Assembly (NCBI RefSeq): GCF_013466785.1
Contig: NZ_CP059163.1
Coordinates: 62,001 to 126,000, forward strand
Length of the DNA stretch: 64,000 nucleotides
Direction: 5' to 3'
DNA from: Nocardioides marinisabuli
Lineage (GTDB): Bacteria > Actinomycetota > Actinomycetes > Propionibacteriales > Nocardioidaceae
Shown here one piece after another: positions 8,231 to 14,645 of this stretch. Numbering within the stretch: position 1 is the stretch's first letter; each line of letters opens with the position of its first letter. The notes under the pieces were generated by a model, which was given only the letters and a program-made list of their open reading frames with translations, was not told the DNA's origin and made no database searches. A program made the position numbers and the translations under genes.

Positions 8231-8469
8231 CATCAAGAGGTGCTGCACAGCGAGATGGGCTCCTCCCGCCGCTTGCGGCCCGCGTGGCTGACGGACACAC
8301 GCGCGCCGTACAGGACCACCACCCCGACACCCTGTAGCTCGGGCCCGCTTCTAGGGGGCCGGGACATCTTGGCGCTTACTTGGCATGTCCTGTTTCCCAT
8401 TCATCGAGGCCCGCGAGAAACGCACTCTCATGCCGATGTCCGGGCGGATGGAATCACTACGCTGAGGGC

Positions 8470-9015
8470 GTGTTCCGGGACCTCATGCGTGACAAAGCCA
8501 AGACCATGCCGACCGATCCGGATGCTGCCGACGTCACGGCGCTTCGGGTCTGGCACTGCAACTACGCGTCACTCGCGCTGGTGACGCAGTACCAACACCT
8601 GAGGACCCTCGTAGTCGCTACCTACCCTGACGCCGACCTCGAACCCGTCGCCTCGTTGGAGGACCTGGAGTACCTGAGCCTCCTGCACCTGCCGGGTGTG
8701 ACCGACTTGGCCCCGCTGGCGCGGTTGACGAATCTCCGCACGCTCCGACTCTCGACACTGCCGAGTTGGGACTCGTCGGGCAAGGTGACCCAAGTGGACT
8801 CGCTGCGACCGCTCGCCATGCTTCCCAAGTTGACTCGCCTGGAGCTCTTTGGGGTACGGCCCGCGAGCAAGTCGCTAAGCGACCTGGAGGGTTCGACAAG
8901 TCTCGTCAGTGTCCGGGTCTCGAAGTACCCCAAGGCAGAGGTCGCGCGTTTCCGCGACGTGACAGGTCTTTCGGATGAGTTCGCACCGGCGCCCGGTGTC
9001 GCTGACTGGAACTGA
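8470..9015 (+). CDS. Leucine-rich-repeat domain protein, cytosolic
   Basis: About 181 aa. From residue 20 onward the protein is made of repeated LRR-like units: VTALRVWHCNYASLA, LRTLVVATY, LEYLSLLHLPGVTDLAPL, LRTLRLSTLP, LTRLELFGV and LVSVRVSKYP. There is no signal peptide or membrane segment. I chose GTG 8470 because TACGCT (8458-8463) lies 6 nt upstream, a spacing shared by several genes in the window and typical of leaderless mRNAs; ATG 8485 is an alternative. Codon use is less GC-biased than the cob genes, and it is the first small gene of the accessory island. LRR proteins of this size usually mediate protein binding; no partner can be named. Confidence 0.65.
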   Translation: MFRDLMRDKAKTMPTDPDAADVTALRVWHCNYASLALVTQYQHLRTLVVATYPDADLEPVASLEDLEYLSLLHLPGVTDLAPLARLTNLRTLRLSTLPSWDSSGKVTQVDSLRPLAMLPKLTRLELFGVRPASKSLSDLEGSTSLVSVRVSKYPKAEVARFRDVTGLSDEFAPAPGVADWN

Positions 9016-9022
9016 CTCGACC

Positions 9023-9062
9023 GGACATGCCGCATTGTGCGCGGTCGTGCCGAGGCGGTCGG
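9023..9062. repeat. Island inter-gene repeat, copy 1
   Basis: This copy of the GC-rich repeat lies exactly between the convergent stops of the LRR gene and the next minus-strand gene. It shares a 15-nt exact word, GCGCGGTCGTGCCGA (9039-9053), with copies at 12513-12557 and 13193-13232. Confidence 0.6.
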
Positions 9063-9236
9063 CTACCGAGTTGAGGGGCGATTGGTGTACACGAAGAGTG
9101 CAGAACGGACTCCGAGCGCGACGGCGGCCACGGCGATGACGCCGCCAACAATCCGCATCCATGTCGGCCCATCCGTCTCCAATGCAGTGGCAAGGGCCAA
9201 GAAGAACACGACAGCATCGAGCACGAGCAGGGTCAT
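9063..9236 (-). CDS. Small membrane protein, hypothetical
   Basis: The predicted 57-aa protein starts MTLLVLDAVVFFLALATAL and has two hydrophobic helices (about 3-20 and 27-47) joined by a short polar loop (ETDGPTWMR), with a charged C-terminus. A 13-residue longer form from GTG 9275 is possible. I recognise no family. It is one of several tiny two-helix proteins in the island, each flanked by the same repeat family. Support comes from the coherent transmembrane pattern and the flanking repeats, not from homology. Confidence 0.45.
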   Translation of the reverse strand: MTLLVLDAVVFFLALATALETDGPTWMRIVGGVIAVAAVALGVRSALFVYTNRPSTR

Positions 9237-9303
9237 GCTCGGTTCTGACCTGAGGCGGACGGGAAGCACCTGCACACGCTAGTCGAGCGGCGGGCCGATA
9301 TAC

Positions 9304-9346
9304 GCACGCTCTTGCCGCGAAGCGCTCGGCCGTGCCGAGATCCGGG
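9304..9346. repeat. Island inter-gene repeat, copy 2
   Basis: This variant copy lies between two minus-strand small membrane genes. It has the pattern GCTCTTGCCGCGAAGCG then CTCGGCCGTGCCGAG, matching the layout of copies 1, 6 and 8 with substitutions. Confidence 0.5.
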
Positions 9347-9362
9347 CTTCTGGTCTCGTGAG

Positions 9363-9773
9363 TCAGGAACGCGTCTTGAACAGCCGAGAAAGGGCCACGG
9401 CAAGAGCACCCACGAGCAGCCCAACTACTGCGACGACGGCTAAGACGATTAGCACATTCCCGACGAACGCCACCGCCGACACGTCCGTTGGGTGTTCCCA
9501 TGGCGAGGACAGGCCCAGCCGGTACGGCAAGGGTGAGTCCAGCGAACTCTGGTTCTGGTGAATCCAATCGAACGGCCAACCCAGATCGACGCTCCGCTGG
9601 CCCCCTCGCGTAGCGACAAGGTCCGTGTCACGAAGCGCTGCCACGAGGACGACACCGAGTGAGACCGCGAAGGCGGGGATCGCCCCGAACGCCGTCGCCA
9701 TGACCGCCCAACGTCGACGGCCACGAGGAGTCGCGTCCGAGACGTCGCTGGACGAAGTCACCAGTTGCTGCAC
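9363..9773 (-). CDS. Hypothetical membrane protein, two helices
   Basis: The 136-aa protein has an Arg-rich N-terminus (TPRGRRRWAVMATAFGAI) leading into a helix at about 25-46. A 50-residue hydrophilic, probably extracytoplasmic loop follows (SLDSPLPYRLGLSSPWEHP), then a second helix at about 101-127 and a basic tail. The start is GTG 9773 with TCTACT 6 nt upstream (9780-9785, reverse strand), suggesting a leaderless transcript. No recognised family. It is flanked on both sides by island repeats. Confidence 0.5.
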   Translation of the reverse strand: MQQLVTSSSDVSDATPRGRRRWAVMATAFGAIPAFAVSLGVVLVAALRDTDLVATRGGQRSVDLGWPFDWIHQNQSSLDSPLPYRLGLSSPWEHPTDVSAVAFVGNVLIVLAVVAVVGLLVGALAVALSRLFKTRS

Positions 9774-9786
9774 CCACGAAGTAGAC

Positions 9787-9833
9787 CATCCGGATCTGCC
9801 GCGATCCGCGCGGTTTCGACGACCAGCGGACGG
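9787..9833. repeat. Island inter-gene repeat, copy 3
   Basis: It contains TGCCGCGATCCGCGCGGT (9797-9814), identical to positions 12522-12539. It also has CATCCGG plus CTGCCGC in the same spacing as copies at 11757-11803 and 14004-14050. It lies between a small membrane gene and the tyrosine recombinase. Confidence 0.6.
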
Positions 9834-9934
9834 GGCAGCTATTGCTGCTGTTCAAGTACTTGCCTGCCACCAGTGTCAGATCCCACCGCCGCCAGTGACC
9901 AGCATCTGTCCGCCACGGCGTTGACGGCTTCACG

Positions 9935-10870
9935 ATGCAGGTTCTTGCTGAAGTGATGACTGCTGACGCCGCACTCCCCGTGACTATCGACATCAACGAC
10001 CAGGTCCTTCATCTGGCTGTTGCCGCACACCTCGCCCGCTACAAGGGCCAGAGCCGCACCCACACCGCCTCCGACCTGAACACCTACCTGGCGTGGTGCC
10101 GCGACCACGGCCTCTTGCCGCTGCAGGCCACTCGAGCTCACATCGAGCTCTTCCTGCGATGGATGCAAGAAGTTCGGCAGCTCAAGCCCTCCACGGTGTC
10201 CCGACGCCTGTCGGTCCTGACGGGCTTCTACCGGACCTGCGTCATCGACGGCGTCCTCGAGCACTCCCCAGCCGAGCACGTCCGCCGACCGAAGGTGACC
10301 CCCGAGTCGCCCACACTTGGGCTAAGCCACCTGCAGTTTGAGGCGATGCTCACCGCTGCTCGCGACTCCAGTAACGTCAACGACTTTGCTCTGGTCGCCA
10401 TGTTGGGTTTGCTCGGACTACGCATCTTCGAGGCCACCGGTGCCGACATCGAAGCACTCAGCGAAGTCCGCGGCCACCGAGTGCTCCGCGTCCATGGCAA
10501 AGGCGACAAGGTCGTCCTGGTGCCACTCTCACCCGCGGTAAGCCGAGCCATCGATCGAGCTGCCGGACACCGCGAAAGCGGCCCGCTGCTACTCAACCGC
10601 GAAGGCCGACGCATGGACCGTCACGCCGCGACCCGTCGGCTACGAAGACTCGCCAAGACGTCTGGCATCACCATCGAGCGCATGCATCCCCACATGCTCA
10701 GACACACCTTCGTCACCACCATGCTCGACGCCGGAGTCGATCTGCGCGACGTCCAGATAGCTGCCCGCCACGCCGACCCCCGCACCACCATGCGATACGA
10801 CCGAGCACGCACGAACCTCGATCGCCACCCCAACTACATCCTGGCCGCCTACATGGCCTCGGCTACCTGA
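9935..10870 (+). CDS. Tyrosine recombinase / integrase (XerC/D-like)
   Basis: The 311-aa protein has an N-terminal SAM-like core-binding domain (about 25-115) and a complete C-terminal catalytic domain. The active-site set is visible: Arg163 (LGLRIFE), the beta-hairpin Lys in HGKGDK, His253 and Arg256 in HMLRHTF, His279 in ARHADP and nucleophile Tyr288 in TTMRYD. The gene therefore appears intact. It performs DNA strand exchange; the target site is unknown. There is no excisionase, no tRNA and no phage gene beside it. It lacks the extra insertion that marks integron integrases. ATG 9956 is an alternative start. It lies inside the array of small repeat-separated genes, and a link between the two is an inference. 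Confidence 0.9.
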   Translation: MQVLAEVMTADAALPVTIDINDQVLHLAVAAHLARYKGQSRTHTASDLNTYLAWCRDHGLLPLQATRAHIELFLRWMQEVRQLKPSTVSRRLSVLTGFYRTCVIDGVLEHSPAEHVRRPKVTPESPTLGLSHLQFEAMLTAARDSSNVNDFALVAMLGLLGLRIFEATGADIEALSEVRGHRVLRVHGKGDKVVLVPLSPAVSRAIDRAAGHRESGPLLLNREGRRMDRHAATRRLRRLAKTSGITIERMHPHMLRHTFVTTMLDAGVDLRDVQIAARHADPRTTMRYDRARTNLDRHPNYILAAYMASAT

Positions 10871-10890
10871 CCAGGTCCGTAACAAGCCTC

Positions 10891-10920
10891 GCGCGCTCGT
10901 GCCGAGAGCCGGACGTGCGG
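10891..10920. repeat. Island inter-gene repeat, partial copy 4
   Basis: GCGCGCTCGTGCCGAGAGCC then GGACG lies just after the recombinase stop. It matches the left half of the copy at 12513-12557. Confidence 0.45.
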
Positions 10921-10945
10921 GCGCAGACGCGATTACCCTCGCTAG

Positions 10946-11440
10946 GTGCAACCGCCGAGACTGCGGCACTCTGCCCGCGCCCTACTCCTCGACGAGGACG
11001 ACCGTCTTCTACTGGCAAGGCACGACCTCACGACTCGGCACATTGGCAGTGTCATTTGGGCGCCGCCCGGCGGCGGCTTGGAGGTCGGGGAGACGCCACT
11101 CGAAGCCGTCGTGCGCGAGTTGGCGGAGGAGGTGGCGCTGTCCGTGCCGATGGACGGCCCCCGCCATGTCTGGCATCAGCAGGTGGTGTCTTCGGCTTAC
11201 GCGAGGGGCTGGGATGGGGCTGTCTTCGACTACTTCCTCGTCAAGTGCGACGCCTTATCTCTCCCCTCAACTTCCAACGATCGGTTGTTGAGAGACGAAG
11301 GCATAACCGAGTTTCGCTGGTGGACGATCGACCAACTTCACGACGCATCGGGCAGCGGTCTACTCCGCCCGCACCACCTGGCCGCGTTGCTCAGCGACCT
11401 ACTGACTGAATCAGCAGAGTCGTATCCCATCGCCATCTGA
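10946..11440 (+). CDS. Nudix hydrolase
   Basis: The 164-aa cytosolic protein has a complete Nudix box near residues 42-64. It begins GGGLEVGETPLEAVVREL, followed by AEEVAL (Gx5Ex7REUxEExGU with Ala/Leu at the end). Enzymes of this family hydrolyse nucleoside diphosphate derivatives (X-P-P-X) with Mg2+; the substrate cannot be read from sequence. The start GTG 10946 has TACCCT (10934-10939) 6 nt upstream, so the mRNA is probably leaderless. It lies directly downstream of the recombinase in the repeat-separated island and on the same strand, but with its own promoter. Confidence 0.85.
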   Translation: MQPPRLRHSARALLLDEDDRLLLARHDLTTRHIGSVIWAPPGGGLEVGETPLEAVVRELAEEVALSVPMDGPRHVWHQQVVSSAYARGWDGAVFDYFLVKCDALSLPSTSNDRLLRDEGITEFRWWTIDQLHDASGSGLLRPHHLAALLSDLLTESAESYPIAI

Positions 11441-11478
11441 CATGCTCGGTGGCGCCGGTGAACGGCGCGTCGGCTATT

Positions 11479-11571
11479 GACGATCTACCCGCGTGCGCTC
11501 CTGGTGCAGCGCTACCTCGGGTCACTTCTGTCGTTGCCGCAGGGAGATCCCCGAGTTGCGCGCGCCGCGCG
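11479..11571. repeat. Long dispersed repeat, copy A (about 92 bp)
   Basis: It is about 80 percent identical by eye to 13246-13340, including the exact stretch GTGCAGCGCTACCTCGGGTCA. It covers the 3' end and downstream flank of the minus-strand small membrane gene that stops at 11522. Confidence 0.65.
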
Positions 11572-11737
11572 CGGCCCCGCGTTGGAGGGCAGTCCAGCCA
11601 GACGCCCCCATGATGATCGCAAGAACCACCATGACCGACACCCCTGGAGAGAACGGAAGCGGATCGGCCACGAGAGCGACGACAACGCCGATCAGGCAGG
11701 CTACCGCTAGGCACACGAGCCACCACTTCGCGTTCAT
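11522..11737 (-). CDS. Small membrane protein, hypothetical
   Basis: The predicted protein is 71 aa from ATG 11737 (MNAKWWLVCLAVACLIGVV...), with two hydrophobic helices (about 4-22 and 28-46) and a basic Arg-rich tail (ALQRGAARGARNSG). A 14-aa longer form is possible. The 3' end lies within a dispersed repeat whose second copy (13246-13340) could encode a decayed version of the same tail. No family recognised. Confidence 0.45.
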   Translation of the reverse strand: MNAKWWLVCLAVACLIGVVVALVADPLPFSPGVSVMVVLAIIMGASGWTALQRGAARGARNSGISLRQRQK

Positions 11738-11756
11738 GCGGCTCACCTTAGAGGGC

Positions 11757-11803
11757 GCGCAGCGTGCGCCCGCGATCATCCGGAACTGCCGCGTCAGCGC
11801 GCG
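11757..11803. repeat. Island inter-gene repeat, copy 5
   Basis: It shares AGCGTGCGCCCGCG (11761-11774) exactly with 14008-14021, then CATCCGG and CTGCCGC at the same spacing. It lies upstream of the 11737 gene and about 20 bp before the next stop. Confidence 0.6.
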
Positions 11804-11824
11804 AACATCTGCCGCAGGTCGCGC

Positions 11825-12019
11825 CTACTGACGGTCGGTGATCCGACGAACGATCAACTTCCCAACTCCGAGCGCCAGTAGCAGTGCCAGCGGCAGAACG
11901 AGTGCAGGGTGCAAGTCAACAGCGCGACCGGCCCAACTGAAGATGACGATGAGCAAGAGGGTGCATAGCCCTACCGCGACAAACGGGCTCACCGCTCGTA
12001 GGTCTGTTCGCGTGGTCAC
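11825..12019 (-). CDS. Small membrane protein, hypothetical
   Basis: This 64-aa protein starts at GTG 12019 and has two hydrophobic helices (about 10-28 and 36-54): FVAVGLCTLLLIVIFSWA and ALVLPLALLLALGVGKL. It ends in a basic tail (RRITDRQ). No family recognised. Repeats flank it at 11757-11803 and 12066-12115. The strand is supported by the coherent helix pattern on this strand only. Confidence 0.45.
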   Translation of the reverse strand: MTTRTDLRAVSPFVAVGLCTLLLIVIFSWAGRAVDLHPALVLPLALLLALGVGKLIVRRITDRQ

Positions 12020-12065
12020 GATCTGCTCAACGAACTTCGGATCGGGTGGCTACGCGTCGGCTGCC

Positions 12066-12115
12066 GCGTAGCGTGCGCGTCAGCGCGCGCTCATCTGCCG
12101 CGTTGAGGGCGGAGA
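12066..12115. repeat. Island inter-gene repeat, copy 6 (divergent)
   Basis: GCGTAGCGTGCGCGTCAGCG then GCTCATCTGCCGCGTTGAGGG joins elements of the 11757 and 13193 copies. It lies between two minus-strand small genes. Confidence 0.45.
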
Positions 12116-12200
12116 GATGAGCGGCAAGATCAAGTTGAGGCCGATGCGGTCCCCATCCTTCGGGACTGCTGCTCGACGCGCGCCTCAGGCTTTCGTCCTC

Positions 12201-12437
12201 CTAGGTCGTCACAAAGAACAAAAGGCTAGAGAGTACGCACGCGATCCCCGCCCCGTAGAGAGCCAGAGTCACCTTGGGAAGCGGCTGGTCGCCGCTCTGT
12301 AGCGCACGAAAGATGGAACGTGGAGCGTGAGTGGTTGCGTGATAGCGGGAGTTCCACGCCAGCAGTCCGAGCATCCCGACAATCGTCAGCGGCAAGCCGC
12401 CGACGAGCAGCAAGAAGGAAAGATCCCGAGTGTCCAC
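12201..12437 (-). CDS. Small membrane protein, hypothetical
   Basis: The 78-aa prediction starts at GTG 12437 because TAGAGT (12445-12450, reverse strand) lies 7 nt upstream; a 6-residue longer TTG start is possible. Two helices are evident, FLLLVGGLPLTIVGMLGLLAW (about 8-28) and VTLALYGAGIACVLSSLLFFV (about 56-76), with a polar loop containing HATTHAPRSIF. No family recognised. Confidence 0.45.
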   Translation of the reverse strand: MDTRDLSFLLLVGGLPLTIVGMLGLLAWNSRYHATTHAPRSIFRALQSGDQPLPKVTLALYGAGIACVLSSLLFFVTT

Positions 12438-12512
12438 CTGGAGCACTCTAGGCAACGCTTACTCGCTGCACCCTGCCCTCGGCTGACGAAGCCGGGACGA
12501 CGCACATGGAAT

Positions 12513-12557
12513 GCGCGCTCGTGCCGCGATCCGCGCGGTCGTGCCGATGAGCGGACG
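12513..12557. repeat. Island inter-gene repeat, copy 7 (best conserved)
   Basis: It contains the 18-nt word shared with 9797-9814 and, at 12533-12553, a 21-nt exact match to 13212-13232. The GCGCTC...GAGCGG ends form an imperfect inverted repeat. Confidence 0.65.
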
Positions 12558-12615
12558 TCCCACCTATCCTCGAATCGTCGACGCGTGCCACCGCCCCGAG
12601 CAAGGGAACTGATTC

Positions 12616-12810
12616 TTGAAACTGAAACTTGTGAACGACGGTGAGGCCTTCCGTGACGTCTATGGAATCGTCGCTGGTGGCGCAGTAATTATTGCGGCAA
12701 TCAGTGCGGTGCAGGGTGGTTGGCGCGCAGCAGTTGTCTTTGTTTGCCTCGCGCTGATTCCCGGAGCCATCTGGCTTCGCGCTCGGTCCAGTAGTCGCCA
12801 CCGACGTTAG
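12616..12810 (+). CDS. Small membrane protein, hypothetical
   Basis: This 64-aa protein starts at TTG 12616, supported by AAGGGA 8 nt upstream and a TATCCT -10 box at 12565-12570. It has one or two hydrophobic segments (VYGIVAGGAVIIAAISAV and WRAAVVFVCLALIPGAIWL) and ends in an Arg/Ser-rich cytosolic tail. Base composition is clearly less GC-rich than in flanking host genes. No family recognised. Confidence 0.5.
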   Translation: MKLKLVNDGEAFRDVYGIVAGGAVIIAAISAVQGGWRAAVVFVCLALIPGAIWLRARSSSRHRR

Positions 12811-12836
12811 GAAGCCACGTTGAAGACTCGGGCCAC

Positions 12837-12867
12837 CGCACGCACGTGCCGATGAGCGTGCGCACGC
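12837..12867. repeat. Island inter-gene repeat, partial copy 8
   Basis: GTGCCGATGAGCG (12846-12858), the right half of the 12513 and 13193 copies, is embedded in a GCGCACGC-type inverted repeat. It lies between two convergent genes. Confidence 0.5.
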
Positions 12868-13122
12868 CTACCGGGGTCTGCCGAACCTGAACCCGCGCTT
12901 CTTCTGCCTCTCCCGTTCGGGAGAAAGGTGCGTGAGAGCGAACTCCAAAGCCAACCCCTTGGTCTGGCCATCGTCGAAGTCGATCCAGACCAAGGGCACG
13001 TCCTTGTAGGTGCCCACGCGTCCAACGCTCCCCGGCCCGAAGGTGCTGTGCAGAACTCGGGCCCCTTCGACCAGCCACGGGGGCGGCTCGACGCTGAAGT
13101 CTGGATGATCCCACTTGGGCAT
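12868..13122 (-). CDS. Small protein resembling the Tudor-like C-terminal domain of UvrD/PcrA helicases
   Basis: The 84-aa protein starts at ATG 13122, with CATACT (13129-13134, reverse strand) 6 nt upstream; GTG 13140 would add six residues. The core VLHSTFGPGSVGRVGTYK then VPLVWIDFDDGQTKGLA follows the pattern V-x-H-x-x-FG-x-G-x-V seen in the SH3/Tudor-like domains at the C-termini of UvrD/PcrA and in CarD/Mfd RNA-polymerase interaction modules. Here it stands alone. Its role is unknown; binding a protein or nucleic acid partner is a guess from the fold. It is flanked by island repeats on both sides. Confidence 0.55.
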   Translation of the reverse strand: MPKWDHPDFSVEPPPWLVEGARVLHSTFGPGSVGRVGTYKDVPLVWIDFDDGQTKGLALEFALTHLSPERERQKKRGFRFGRPR

Positions 13123-13192
13123 GGGCAGAGTATGAGTCACCAGCCTGGGGCTTGCGACCGCTCATGCCCCGTAGCGCGCCCTCAGAGACGCT

Positions 13193-13232
13193 CGCTCATG
13201 CCGCCGACAGCGCGCGGTCGTGCCGATGAGCG
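13193..13232. repeat. Island inter-gene repeat, copy 9 (clearest palindrome)
   Basis: It begins CGCTCAT and ends ATGAGCG (13193-13199 and 13226-13232), with partly complementary interior arms separated by a GC-rich centre. Its right 21 nt are identical to 12533-12553. Confidence 0.65.
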
Positions 13233-13245
13233 CGAGGCGCTTGTT

Positions 13246-13340
13246 GGCGATCTACCGGCGTGCGCTTCTGGGTGCAGCGCTACCTCGGGTCATTCCTGTC
13301 GATGCCGGAGGGGCGACCCCGAGTCGCACGCGCTCCCCGC
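13246..13340. repeat. Long dispersed repeat, copy B (about 95 bp)
   Basis: This second copy of the repeat at 11479-11571 has the same orientation. The reverse strand encodes AARGARATRGRPSG, similar to the tail of the gene at 11522-11737, so this may be the remnant of a lost related gene. No other gene is visible between 13123 and 13415. Confidence 0.6.
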
Positions 13341-13415
13341 GCTGCAGCGATCATTGCGCCGATCAGGTGTCTGGGTGACCGGGGCAGGGTCGATAGCGTG
13401 CCGCGAGCTGCGTGT

Positions 13416-13814
13416 TTACCGGCGGAGCTCGGTGCGTAACCTCGTCGCGAACGGCGGCCAGTGCCGTCGTGGACTGGGACGATCGAATTCTTTCCATGTC
13501 CACACAGTGAATCCCGAACCGCCCATGAGCGATAGTACTGCCAGAATCACTAGTGTTCGATATTGCAGCGTTATGGCCAGAGTGGTGAAACCCATTGCGA
13601 AGGCCATGCAAAGTGCTGACAGTGACGCAGGGAACAAGCAGAATCCCAATTTTGCCCGCCACAGCGCCTCGCGTCGACTTCTAAAATTGTCAACACCGGC
13701 TTTGCCGAAACCGCGATGAAACCATCGATGTTGAACCCACAGCACACCCGCGGCCAAAAAAAGGCCGATGGAGAGGGCCAGAGAGAACAGCATCTCGCCA
13801 AGATGCGGATTAGA
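13416..13814 (-). CDS. Hypothetical multi-pass membrane protein, AT-richer than surroundings
   Basis: The predicted 132-aa protein starts at ATG 13814 (MSNPHLGEMLFSLAL...) with GAAGG upstream; ATG 13829 would add five residues. Hydrophobic segments lie near 8-27, 57-78 and 86-105 (FSLALSIGLFLAAGVLW, LGFCLFPASLSALCMAFAMGF, LVILAVLSLMGGSGFTVW). Codons are strikingly less GC-biased than the rest of the window, with many A/T third positions between about 13490 and 13830. This suggests recent acquisition from a lower-GC source. No family recognised. Confidence 0.55.
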   Translation of the reverse strand, partial: SNPHLGEMLFSLALSIGLFLAAGVLWVQHRWFHRGFGKAGVDNFRSRREALWRAKLGFCLFPASLSALCMAFAMGFTTLAITLQYRTLVILAVLSLMGGSGFTVWTWKEFDRPSPRRHWPPFATRLRTELRR

Positions 13815-14003
13815 CATCGCCTTCACCACAGAATTTCGGCGAGCTCAAGTATGGCGAAGTTCACAAATGCCCAACTACTGGCCCCAGCCCCGAAGGGATG
13901 ACGAGTAGGACTGTGTCGACTATGGCAGGTGGCAAGGTCGTGAGCAGGGACCGGCTCCTGGTCATGTCTGAGGCGTCATCCACGGCAGGACGGTATCCCG
14001 CCC

Positions 14004-14050
14004 GCGTAGCGTGCGCCCGCGGCCATCCGGTTCTGCCGCTAGTGGTGCGC
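14004..14050. repeat. Island inter-gene repeat, copy 10, in an otherwise empty 340-bp gap
   Basis: It shares AGCGTGCGCCCGCG (14008-14021) with 11761-11774 and the CATCCGG-N2-CTGCCGC spacing with copies 3 and 5. The interval 13815-14154 contains no other supportable gene; open frames there on both strands lack start context and any recognisable protein pattern. Confidence 0.55.
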
Positions 14051-14154
14051 CCTCGGAGCGAGATACGTGCGTTCCTACGCGGGCGCACGAACCTCGACCG
14101 TCGAACCTGGCTGACGTTAGTTCGTGGATCACGATCACGGGCGATACTCCGAGC

Positions 14155-14577
14155 ATGAGCATCTCGGAACGGTCGACTATCGAAGAGACGCACGCGTCCG
14201 GGACCAGGGCAGGATGGACAACTCGACGCGTCGTTCTCGCTGCCGTTCTCGCACTGCTCCTCGTATCGCTCGGCTACGTCGGCGGTGCTCGTTCGCCGTG
14301 GATGGCTCACCATCCTTCTGTCGTCAGCGGCACCGCGGAAAGGGTTCCAGCGAACGTTCCCTACGCTTACTTCCAGCCGGACGACGGTGACAAGTTCGCC
14401 TTCCGACTCGACGACGTCGCGTGGGAATCCGGGGACAGGGTCGGCTCTGGGAACATCCCGCCCTGCCTGCGAGAAGCCGGTGAGAGCGTGGCCGTGCACG
14501 CGGGGGTCATCGAGGTGGCCCGCCCCTATGGTTCCGGTTCCTATCGGCAGGTCCTGTCAGTGACGTGCCTCGACTGA
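14155..14577 (+). CDS. Hypothetical membrane-anchored extracytoplasmic protein
   Basis: The 140-aa protein starts at ATG 14155, with GATACT (14143-14148) 6 nt upstream (leaderless pattern). It has a short cytosolic N-terminus, one signal-anchor helix (RRVVLAAVLALLLVSLGYV, about 24-42) and a soluble C-terminal domain of about 95 residues with two cysteines (PPCLREAGE and SVTCLD) that could form a disulfide outside the cell. No family recognised. It is the last gene of the repeat-separated island. Confidence 0.6.
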   Translation: MSISERSTIEETHASGTRAGWTTRRVVLAAVLALLLVSLGYVGGARSPWMAHHPSVVSGTAERVPANVPYAYFQPDDGDKFAFRLDDVAWESGDRVGSGNIPPCLREAGESVAVHAGVIEVARPYGSGSYRQVLSVTCLD

Positions 14578-14645
14578 CCGACTCCGCCGCGATGCGCTGA
14601 ACGGATGCAGGAGGCACGCAGCCAACCCGGCGTGGGACCGCTCGC

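What the first reader, a model, noticed from the sequence alone, without database searches (positions are those of the whole stretch)
8470..14577. Cassette-like array: a tyrosine recombinase amid about ten small genes separated by one family of palindromic repeats
Between the LRR gene and 14.6 kb, nearly every junction between small genes carries a 30-50 bp GC-rich element of one family. Exact shared words include 18 nt (9797-9814 = 12522-12539), 21 nt (12533-12553 = 13212-13232), 15 nt (9039-9053 inside both of those) and 14 nt (11761-11774 = 14008-14021). The copy at 13193-13232 has CGCTCAT/ATGAGCG ends with partly complementary arms. Genes lie in both orientations, are short and unrelated, and several have their own promoters. 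An intact tyrosine recombinase sits inside. This looks like a gene-cassette array with hairpin recombination sites, but the integron attC core (GTTRRRY/RYYYAAC) is absent and the recombinase lacks the integron-integrase insertion. If the repeats are recombination sites, this would be an undescribed actinobacterial cassette system. The alternative is plain REP elements or terminators.
Basis: partly seen in the sequence, partly recalled or inferred. Interest (0 to 1): 0.78.

Follow-up and report, generated by a model that had tools for sequence, protein, structure and literature searches.

The report
Integron-like gene-cassette array in actinobacteria
In this actinobacterial genome about ten small unrelated genes are separated by copies of one 30-letter DNA site at which related bacteria have gained, lost and exchanged genes, likely through the recombinase encoded among them; it resembles the gene-collecting integrons of other bacteria but is built from different parts.

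Summary
The repeat is a ~30-bp site: inverted ~10-bp arms around a 6-bp spacer TGCCG(A/C). The window has 14 strong copies, all in one orientation (8431-14034), bounding about ten small genes including a tyrosine recombinase (9935-10870).

A weight matrix trained on 21 loci was tested on 71 other loci, fetched only because they encode a 67-80% identical recombinase, across many actinomycete families. It found 366 sites (2 in the reversed sequences), in 71 of 71 loci. All 18 loci with less similar recombinases have none, and the site-associated recombinases form one clade (100/99).

Recombination at the spacer is read from sequence. Two copies of one cassette in one genome match for 620 bp, exactly spacer to spacer. 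Two sister species differ by three insertions with five of six junctions at sites. Cassettes are shared between families.

Base-pair covariation, expected of an attC-like hairpin, was not found; the recombinase is far below integron-integrase cut-offs. So this is not an integron and not REP elements or terminators, but a separate cassette platform in a phylum reported to lack complete integrons. Catalysis by this recombinase is inferred.

The parts
8419..8448 (+). cassette site 1 (AACGCACTCTCA-TGCCGA-TGTCCGGGCGGA), left end of the array
   Evidence: weight matrix 30.5 bits
8470..9015 (+). cassette 1: leucine-rich-repeat protein, likely leaderless (TACGCT a few nt before GTG, read from sequence)
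   Evidence: ORF; Pfam LRR, weak, below gathering score; same cassette 70-71% identical at two places in genome G098
9016..9045 (+). cassette site 2
   Evidence: 18.2 bits
9063..9275 (-). cassette 2: 70-aa protein, likely membrane (read from sequence)
   Evidence: ORF; no family above cut-off
9301..9350 (+). cassette sites 3 and 4, spacers 9313 (TGCCGC) and 9333 (TGCCGA)
   Evidence: 24.0 and 21.8 bits
9363..9773 (-). cassette 3: 136-aa protein, likely membrane (read from sequence)
   Evidence: ORF
9785..9814 (+). cassette site 5
   Evidence: 25.4 bits
9935..10870 (+). cassette 4: tyrosine recombinase, 311 aa, catalytic R163 K189 H253 R256 H279 Y288
   Evidence: Pfam Phage_integrase 1.2e-26; catalytic residues kept in 88-91 of 91 orthologue rows; tree
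10888..10917 (+). cassette site 6, starting 18 bp after the recombinase stop
   Evidence: 17.0 bits; a site within 150 bp downstream in 32 of 71 loci
10946..11440 (+). cassette 5: NUDIX hydrolase
   Evidence: Pfam NUDIX 4.1e-16
11444..11573 (+). segment 79% identical to 13212-13341, which starts in site 13 there and in a decayed site here
   Evidence: blastn
11522..12019 (-). two small ORFs, likely membrane (11522-11779, 11825-12019), separated by decayed sites near 11756-11815
   Evidence: ORFs; repeats D9, D13, D17
12084..12113 (+). cassette site 7
   Evidence: 18.7 bits
12201..12455 (-). cassette 6: 84-aa protein, likely membrane (read from sequence)
   Evidence: ORF
12510..12559 (+). cassette sites 8 and 9, spacers 12522 and 12542
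   Evidence: 25.1 and 23.4 bits
12616..12810 (+). cassette 7: 64-aa protein, likely membrane (read from sequence)
   Evidence: ORF
12835..12864 (+). cassette site 10
   Evidence: 26.9 bits
12868..13140 (-). cassette 8: 90-aa protein
   Evidence: ORF
   Evidence: 15.5, 22.8 and 23.5 bits
13416..13829 (-). cassette 9: 137-aa protein, likely membrane (read from sequence)
   Evidence: ORF
14022..14051 (+). cassette site 14, last strong site
   Evidence: 19.5 bits
14155..14577 (+). cassette 10: 140-aa protein
   Evidence: ORF; a weak site follows at 14573-14602 (11.0 bits)

Best explanation
The 8.4-14.6 kb region is an array of about ten gene cassettes bounded by co-oriented copies of one ~30-bp site (two inverted ~10-bp arms around the 6-bp spacer TGCCG[A/C]), and the tyrosine recombinase encoded in it (9935-10870) is predicted to insert and excise cassettes by crossing over within that spacer. 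Shown from sequence: homologous cassettes in different places can begin and end exactly at the spacer, cassettes have been gained or lost at sites between sister species, and cassettes recur in different actinobacterial families. Shown from sequence: the site accompanies one clade of recombinases and none of the 18 more distant ones tested. Inferred: a dimer of this recombinase binds the two arms of double-stranded DNA, the asymmetric spacer sets the common orientation, and an excised cassette is a circle with one site that can re-enter at any other site. Inferred: most cassettes carry their own promoter, often leaderless, because genes lie in either direction. The recombinase is itself in a cassette slot and, by its tree, is inherited mostly with the host family, while its cargo turns over.
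For: Out-of-sample test: 71 loci (of 79 fetched; 8 from training genomes dropped) chosen by recombinase homology alone hold 366 sites >15 bits in 1.147 Mb against 2 in the same sequences reversed; 71 of 71 loci against 2 of 71; 334 of 366 oriented like the recombinase gene. Specificity: 0 sites in 18 of 18 loci of 40-48% identical recombinases (69 kb) and 0 in 78 kb of other chromosome, against 54 in 11 of 11 orthologue loci (41 kb; these overlap the training loci). 90 site-associated recombinase rows (82 distinct loci) are one clade, support 100/99, with 19 others outside. Exchange: in G098 an LRR cassette at two loci is identical but for 2 of 620 bp, from left TGCCGA to right TGCCGA, flanks unrelated. 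N. glacieisoli and N. lacusdianchii are colinear with three indels of about 2.2, 3.6 and 0.7 kb, five of six junctions at sites. Of 50 homologous segments, 35 of 100 ends lie within 20 nt of a spacer (shift null 6.7, max 15 in 1000) and 10 have both ends there (null 0.31, max 3); cross-family pairs include 974 bp at 93.6% (G108/G105) and 606 bp at 90.4% (G105/G098). Catalytic residues kept in 88-91 of 91 rows. Cargo: 157 called ORFs in 122 clusters, only the recombinase (25) recurring more than twice. Five of five IS110-family copies read at both ends sit in the spacer of a site.
Against: No recombination was assayed; the enzyme-site link is by association. Of 132 genomes without an orthologue, 28 still have at least 7 model hits, so arrays persist without the gene or another enzyme serves them. 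25 of 50 homologous segments have neither end at a site. One of six sister-species junctions is diffuse, and a duplicated G002 cassette matches 48 and 27 bp beyond its sites. Some sites are solitary: 7 of 20 stretches fetched around model hits hold only one or two sites, 2671778 and 3962074 of the own genome among them. Conserved site sequence can itself pull alignment ends towards sites, so overstates somewhat; the 620-bp case does not depend on that. No strain-level pair of the window's own species was available.
Confidence: 0.87

Rival explanations
1. The sites act as folded single-stranded hairpins, as attC sites of integrons do; the paired 40-bp elements (site-loop-site) would be the true unit.
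For: Paired elements have the layout arm-spacer-arm-arm-spacer-arm, and six large Propionibacteriales arrays have 47 close pairs among 152 sites; each site is an inverted repeat in consensus.
Against: No covariation between arms: z 0.44-0.65 for outer arms and -0.19 to 0.99 for inner arms in 49 pairs; z 0.74-0.97 within 252 distinct single sites. Folding energies of 12 window elements are near shuffled values except one at z -2.5 and one at -1.8. Only 3 close pairs among 182 sites in Micromonosporaceae.
Confidence: 0.08
2. The sites and cassette exchange are real but another enzyme does it (for example the host XerC/XerD pair); this recombinase is one more passenger gene.
For: Sites resemble dif in layout (two arms, 6-bp spacer) and the genome has two other Xer-type recombinases; arrays occur in genomes without the orthologue; the gene sits in a cassette slot.
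Against: Sites accompany this clade in 71 of 71 independent loci and none of the 18 paralogue loci; genomes with the orthologue have more sites (median 12 against 2, Mann-Whitney p 2e-7); no other cargo family recurs more than twice.
Confidence: 0.06
3. The repeats are REP/BIME elements or transcription terminators between ordinary genes.
For: Short GC-rich inverted repeats between genes; only a consensus-level dyad; some solitary copies.
Against: Mostly in arrays; nearly one orientation per array although 56 of 132 called non-recombinase genes run against it; breakpoints at the spacer.
Confidence: 0.01
4. A true integron with diverged attC sites and IntI.
For: Array logic, diverse cargo, tyrosine recombinase; weak match to the integron-integrase model.
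Against: TIGR02249 48 bits against a cut-off of 265, below the XerC/XerD models, and two Xer-type proteins of the same genome score higher on it (102 and 122 bits); no GTTRRRY core in the consensus; no hairpin covariation.
Confidence: 0.01

Closest known systems
Integrons (IntI / attI / attC gene cassettes)
   Same: Tandem small unrelated genes bounded by co-oriented recombination sites, a tyrosine recombinase at the array, cargo exchanged between distant hosts, arrays lacking the recombinase, recombinase tree that mostly follows host families (integron side recalled).
   Different: Different recombinase clade, different site (TGCCG spacer, no GTTRRRY in the consensus, no hairpin covariation), genes in either direction (76 with, 56 against the site), recombinase itself in a cassette slot. 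[quoted passage not shown]
dif modules bounded by pdif sites (Acinetobacter plasmids, XerC/XerD)
   Same: Gene modules bounded by short sites of two inverted arms around a 6-bp spacer; insertion sequences that home on the sites (PMC10132070, passages seen).
   Different: Here sites are mostly co-oriented (334:32) rather than alternating, in chromosomal loci, and tied to a dedicated recombinase clade rather than host XerC/XerD; the IS found in the spacer is of the IS110 family, not IS1202.
Tyrosine integrases of Arthrobacter and Gordonia phages
   Same: Nearest listed phage relatives, about 48-49% identical over 89% of the protein (ten of 110 records listed, one unlisted record lies in the 60-80% band).
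   Different: Phage integrase genes; no site above 9 bits within 2.5 kb of the one examined.
IS1111/IS110 insertion sequences that target attC (recalled; PMC11187229 seen in a search listing only)
   Same: IS110-family element at a fixed place in a recombination site.
   Different: The target is the new site, in actinobacteria.

Membership tests
Integron | IntI integrase (NCBIfam TIGR02249 above cut-off) | tested here: not met
   48 bits, cut-off 265
Integron | attC core GTTRRRY/RYYYAAC | tested here: not met
   site consensus aaCGYMCGSWYM-TGCCGM-inverted arm
Integron | attC hairpin: arms base-pair | tested here: not met
   no covariation above shuffles
Integron | distinct attI site beside the integrase | tested here: inconclusive
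   a site within 150 bp downstream in 32 of 71 loci, but of the common type
Integron | array of diverse cassettes bounded by co-oriented sites | tested here: met
Integron | cassette gain and loss at the site | tested here: met
dif (pdif) modules | site of two inverted arms with 6-bp spacer | tested here: met
dif (pdif) modules | modules flanked by sites of opposite orientation | tested here: not met
   14:0 in the window; 334:32 in 71 loci; exceptions at a few recombinase-centred arrays
dif (pdif) modules | moved by host XerC/XerD | not testable with these tools
   needs an assay; Xer-type proteins exist in the genome
XerC or XerD | NCBIfam equivalog score above cut-off | tested here: not met
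   128 of 335 and 126 of 330 bits; the genome's two Xer-type proteins are also below these two cut-offs, at 281-304 and 292-301 bits
REP/BIME or terminator | dispersed, or placed by gene direction | tested here: not met
   mostly clustered and independent of gene direction

The most novel reading that the evidence does not exclude
Actinobacteria evolved their own gene-cassette platform, independent of integrons: a dedicated tyrosine recombinase clade that shuffles promoter-bearing cassettes as double-stranded circles through TGCCG-spacer sites, inherited with host families from Nocardioides to Micromonospora, Nocardia and Amycolatopsis, with its own recombinase-less arrays and its own IS110 parasites, filling the niche that integrons leave empty in this phylum.
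Probability: 0.6. Interest if true: 0.93.

Novelty: new variant of a known kind. Interest (0 to 1): 0.86.

Why it matters
Integrons are the textbook gene-capture platform, and Actinobacteria are reported to lack complete ones (PMC9024848). A second cassette platform, with its own recombinase and site, in a phylum rich in natural products and soil adaptation would mean that modular gene capture arose more than once. It also provides a ready map: 193 candidate recombinase stretches in one scan of named genomes, a site model that finds arrays, and hundreds of cassette intervals with mostly uncharacterised cargo. It makes open questions testable: whether single-stranded hairpins are needed for cassette capture, and how promoter-bearing cassettes differ from promoterless ones.

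Tried and rejected
Hairpin (attC-like) site: tested by arm covariation and by folding against shuffles, rejected for now. Known RNA families: one sub-threshold msiK match only. Plasmid or phage origin: the 12 plasmid records with a relative are all below 60% identity; the ten phage records listed of 110 are about 48-49% identical, one unlisted record in the 60-80% band was not examined; no site beside the one phage integrase read. Structure: the single-sequence model was useless (mean pLDDT 36); a model on 31 sequences (pLDDT 77.5, pTM 0.64) matched many tyrosine recombinases at query TM-scores of about 0.39-0.47 in the 50 rows listed, integron integrase 2a3v among them (rank 16), so it does not discriminate. 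Pattern AACGYMCKVWYMTGCCGM across 396 genomes of the phylum gave 18 genomes, no more than its reversed control, although sites are plain beside the recombinase in other orders, so the strict pattern understates the spread. Defence as the main cargo: of 125 ORFs, the 25 PADLOC families listed (of 90) match one ORF each, except one that matches three; Pfam gives scattered accessory families. The coding-potential caller found ORFs in only 157 of 471 intervals, so the cargo census is partial; of 130 cargo ORFs I scanned 125, leaving out five near-duplicates. Lower G+C as a mark of arrays: clear in the window but not in all arrays. The matrix threshold differs between scripts (12-15 bits); each count names its call. 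My junction print for L096/L098 used reversed coordinates and is void. My notebook line that every model hit lies in a cluster is too strong; the counts in the report replace it. Literature: 9 searches of the open PMC set showed no description of this system; subscription papers and bioRxiv were not searchable.
Full report
OBSERVATION. Starting from the shared word TGCCGATGAGCG and the same region of relatives, an expectation-maximisation weight matrix resolved the family as a simple site of about 30 bp: left arm aaCG(C/T)(C/A)CG(C/G)(A/T)C(A/C), spacer TGCCG(A/C), and a right arm that is the inverted repeat of the left in consensus. The window holds 14 strong copies from 8431 to 14034, all on the + strand, plus decayed ones. 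The 40-bp 'palindrome' is two sites about 20 bp apart, usually the first with TGCCGC and the second with TGCCGA. The window's array has lower G+C than the rest of the window (0.638 against 0.746); in six of seven other arrays measured the difference is smaller.

MOSTLY IN ARRAYS. In the own genome 12 hits of a sequence-only model reach E <= 0.1: seven in this array, two in a second array at 3.5647-3.5686 Mb and three elsewhere. Of the 20 stretches fetched around strict-pattern hits, 17 hold at least three sites above 15 bits; most such clusters are in one orientation, for example 14:0, 0:25, 0:15 and 8:0, with a few mixed (some of these genomes also gave training loci). Of 20 further stretches fetched around model hits, 13 hold three or more sites (up to 0:15, 14:0 and 1:16) and 7 hold one or two. 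A strict pattern finds a match in 68 of 145 genomes (own and relatives); in 396 genomes across the phylum it matches in 18, no more than its reversed control.

TIED TO ONE RECOMBINASE CLADE. A scan of named genomes with the window's recombinase returned 79 loci at 67-80% identity (best segment) from many actinomycete families, among them Nocardioides, Kribbella, Knoellia, Ornithinimicrobium, Tessaracoccus, Amycolatopsis, Lentzea, Nocardia, Micromonospora, Actinoplanes and Planotetraspora. The other 71 loci (a few genomes give two), chosen without regard to sites, hold 366 sites above 15 bits in 1.147 Mb; the same sequences reversed hold 2. All 71 have a site, and 334 of 366 sites point the way of the recombinase gene. 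Recombinases of 40-48% identity have none near them (0 of 18 loci, 69 kb), orthologue loci of the same fetch size have 54 in 11 of 11 (41 kb; these overlap the training loci), and other chromosomal loci have 0 in 78 kb. In a maximum-likelihood tree the 90 site-associated rows (82 distinct loci) are one clade (100/99) apart from 19 others, and inside it host families mostly cluster. The catalytic R, K, H, R, H, Y are kept in 89, 91, 91, 90, 91 and 88 of 91 orthologue rows. Among 145 genomes the 13 with an orthologue (one partial, one decayed) have a median of 12 model hits and the other 132 a median of 2 (p 2e-7); 28 of the 132 still have at least 7 (hit counts are lower bounds because only 50 candidates per genome were scored).

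EXCHANGE AT THE SPACER. The cleanest case is in genome G098, where the cassette for an LRR protein (the same kind as the window's first cassette, 70-71% identical to it) occurs at two places 1.7 Mb apart. The copies match at all but 2 of 620 positions, from the first base of the left TGCCGA to the last base of the right TGCCGA. The 40 bp before agree at 15 positions and the sequence after at about the chance level. Second, Nocardioides glacieisoli and N. lacusdianchii, sisters in the recombinase tree, are colinear around the recombinase but differ by insertions of about 2.2, 3.6 and 0.7 kb. Five of the six junctions fall within 16 nt of a spacer centre; the right junction of the first is diffuse, and the last also differs by a 34-bp gene-less unit. 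Third, over all loci 50 homologous non-recombinase segments passed filters (150-2500 bp, at least 80% identity, within 1.5 kb of a site, not at contig ends, not overlapping the recombinase). 35 of their 100 ends lie within 20 nt of a spacer centre, against 6.7 expected under shifts (maximum 15 in 1000); 10 segments have both ends there against 0.31 (maximum 3), 15 one end and 25 neither. Among them are cassettes shared between families, e.g. 974 bp at 93.6% (G108/G105) and 606 bp at 90.4% (G105/G098), and between the genera Micromonospora and Actinoplanes (855 bp at 86.8%).

HOW IT LIKELY WORKS. Two inverted arms around a short asymmetric spacer is the double-stranded core layout of tyrosine recombinases (for Xer/dif see PMC10132070, passages). 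The spacer asymmetry explains the common orientation. I infer that a dimer binds each site, that strand exchange is inside TGCCG, and that an excised cassette is a circle with one site. The hairpin alternative predicts base-pair covariation between arms; none was seen in 49 paired elements or 252 distinct single sites, although the consensus dyad is clear (4.68 of 10 positions paired against 2.83 for random sequence of 68% G+C). Six large Propionibacteriales arrays have 47 close pairs among 152 sites, but Micromonosporaceae loci have 3 among 182 and other groups 1 among 45, 6 among 49 and 12 among 96, so the single site is the unit.

CARGO. Between sites 471 intervals of 200-2500 bp have a median length of 649 bp. 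A coding-potential caller found an ORF in 157, of which 25 are the recombinase; the other 132 run 76 along and 56 against the site direction. The 157 fall in 122 clusters, of which only the recombinase recurs more than twice. Of 125 cargo ORFs scanned, Pfam gives 109 families, led by GNAT acetyltransferases (4), methyltransferases (3) and glyoxalases (3); anti-phage matches are scattered. Genes in both directions, and a TANNNT-like box just before a leaderless start as in cassette 1 (TACGCT, then GTG at 8470), suggest that cassettes carry their own promoters; this was read from sequence and not tested.

A PARASITE OF THE SITE. IS110-family elements (Pfam DEDD_Tnp_IS110 and Transposase_20) in five arrays were read at both ends; all five are inserted within the spacer of a site (left arm and TG, then the IS, then GCCG and the right arm). 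Other, weaker or shorter matches were not read at both ends. This parallels IS that home on attC (recalled) and near pdif (PMC10132070).

WHAT IT IS NOT. It is not an integron: TIGR02249 48 bits against 265, no GTTRRRY core in the consensus, no hairpin signal. It is not XerC/XerD (128 and 126 bits against 335 and 330), and two Xer-type proteins exist elsewhere in the genome. It is not a pdif module system by site orientation and location. It is not REP or terminators. It works like an integron or a dif-module array without being a member of either.

NOVELTY. Nine searches of the open-access library showed no account of such a system, and IntegronFinder 2.0 states that Actinobacteria lack complete integrons (PMC9024848, passages). 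I file it as a new variant of the tyrosine-recombinase cassette platforms, and put the bolder reading, an independent platform, in the novel case. The step that is not shown is catalysis by this recombinase.

Noticed in passing
G000:C1:3564728-3568618 (L093 4740-8610): A second array of the same sites in the own genome without a recombinase orthologue nearby; an IS110-family element sits in the spacer of a site at its left end.
   Followed up: partly
L093 2584-4035, L215 7528-8960, L204 4279-5698, L166 6164-7621, L183 3902-5355: IS110-family insertion sequences, about 77-79% identical to the L093 copy, each inserted inside the TGCCG spacer of a site; a candidate guide-RNA system that targets these sites.
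   Followed up: partly
L114 1290-1340 (reverse strand): A short remnant of such an IS end left inside a site spacer.
   Followed up: no
G000:C1:2671778 (L136 5795) and 3962074 (L137 6085): Strong sites outside the arrays; the first has an IS110-end remnant about 1.3 kb away.
   Followed up: no
L104 2276-2357: Two sites in inverted orientation form a long near-perfect palindrome (CGCTCATCGGCATGACAG...CTGTCATGCCGATGAGCG), unlike the other copies read.
   Followed up: no
L098 (same locus as L160), L107 (same as L179), L158, L178: Recombinase in the centre with the nearest sites pointing away from it on both sides, which could allow inversion of the recombinase segment; in most loci the array is one-directional.
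   Followed up: no
L153 8622-8758; L100 5689-5747; L103 5146-5175: Gene-less mini-units of 34 or 29 bp between successive TGCCG spacers, sometimes in tandem.
   Followed up: no
L140 6063-6885 and L141 6447-7269 (genome G002): One cassette, methyltransferase-like by eye, at two distant loci, 99.1% identical over 823 bp, slightly longer than site to site.
   Followed up: partly
L110 10245-10763 (genome G108): Recombinase orthologue lacking about 110 internal residues; beside it a stretch of array repeated elsewhere in the same genome (against L129, 96-99% identical).
   Followed up: no
L177: A MAG labelled Acidobacteria carries an Ornithinimicrobium-like recombinase and one site; either transfer or a binning error.
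   Followed up: no
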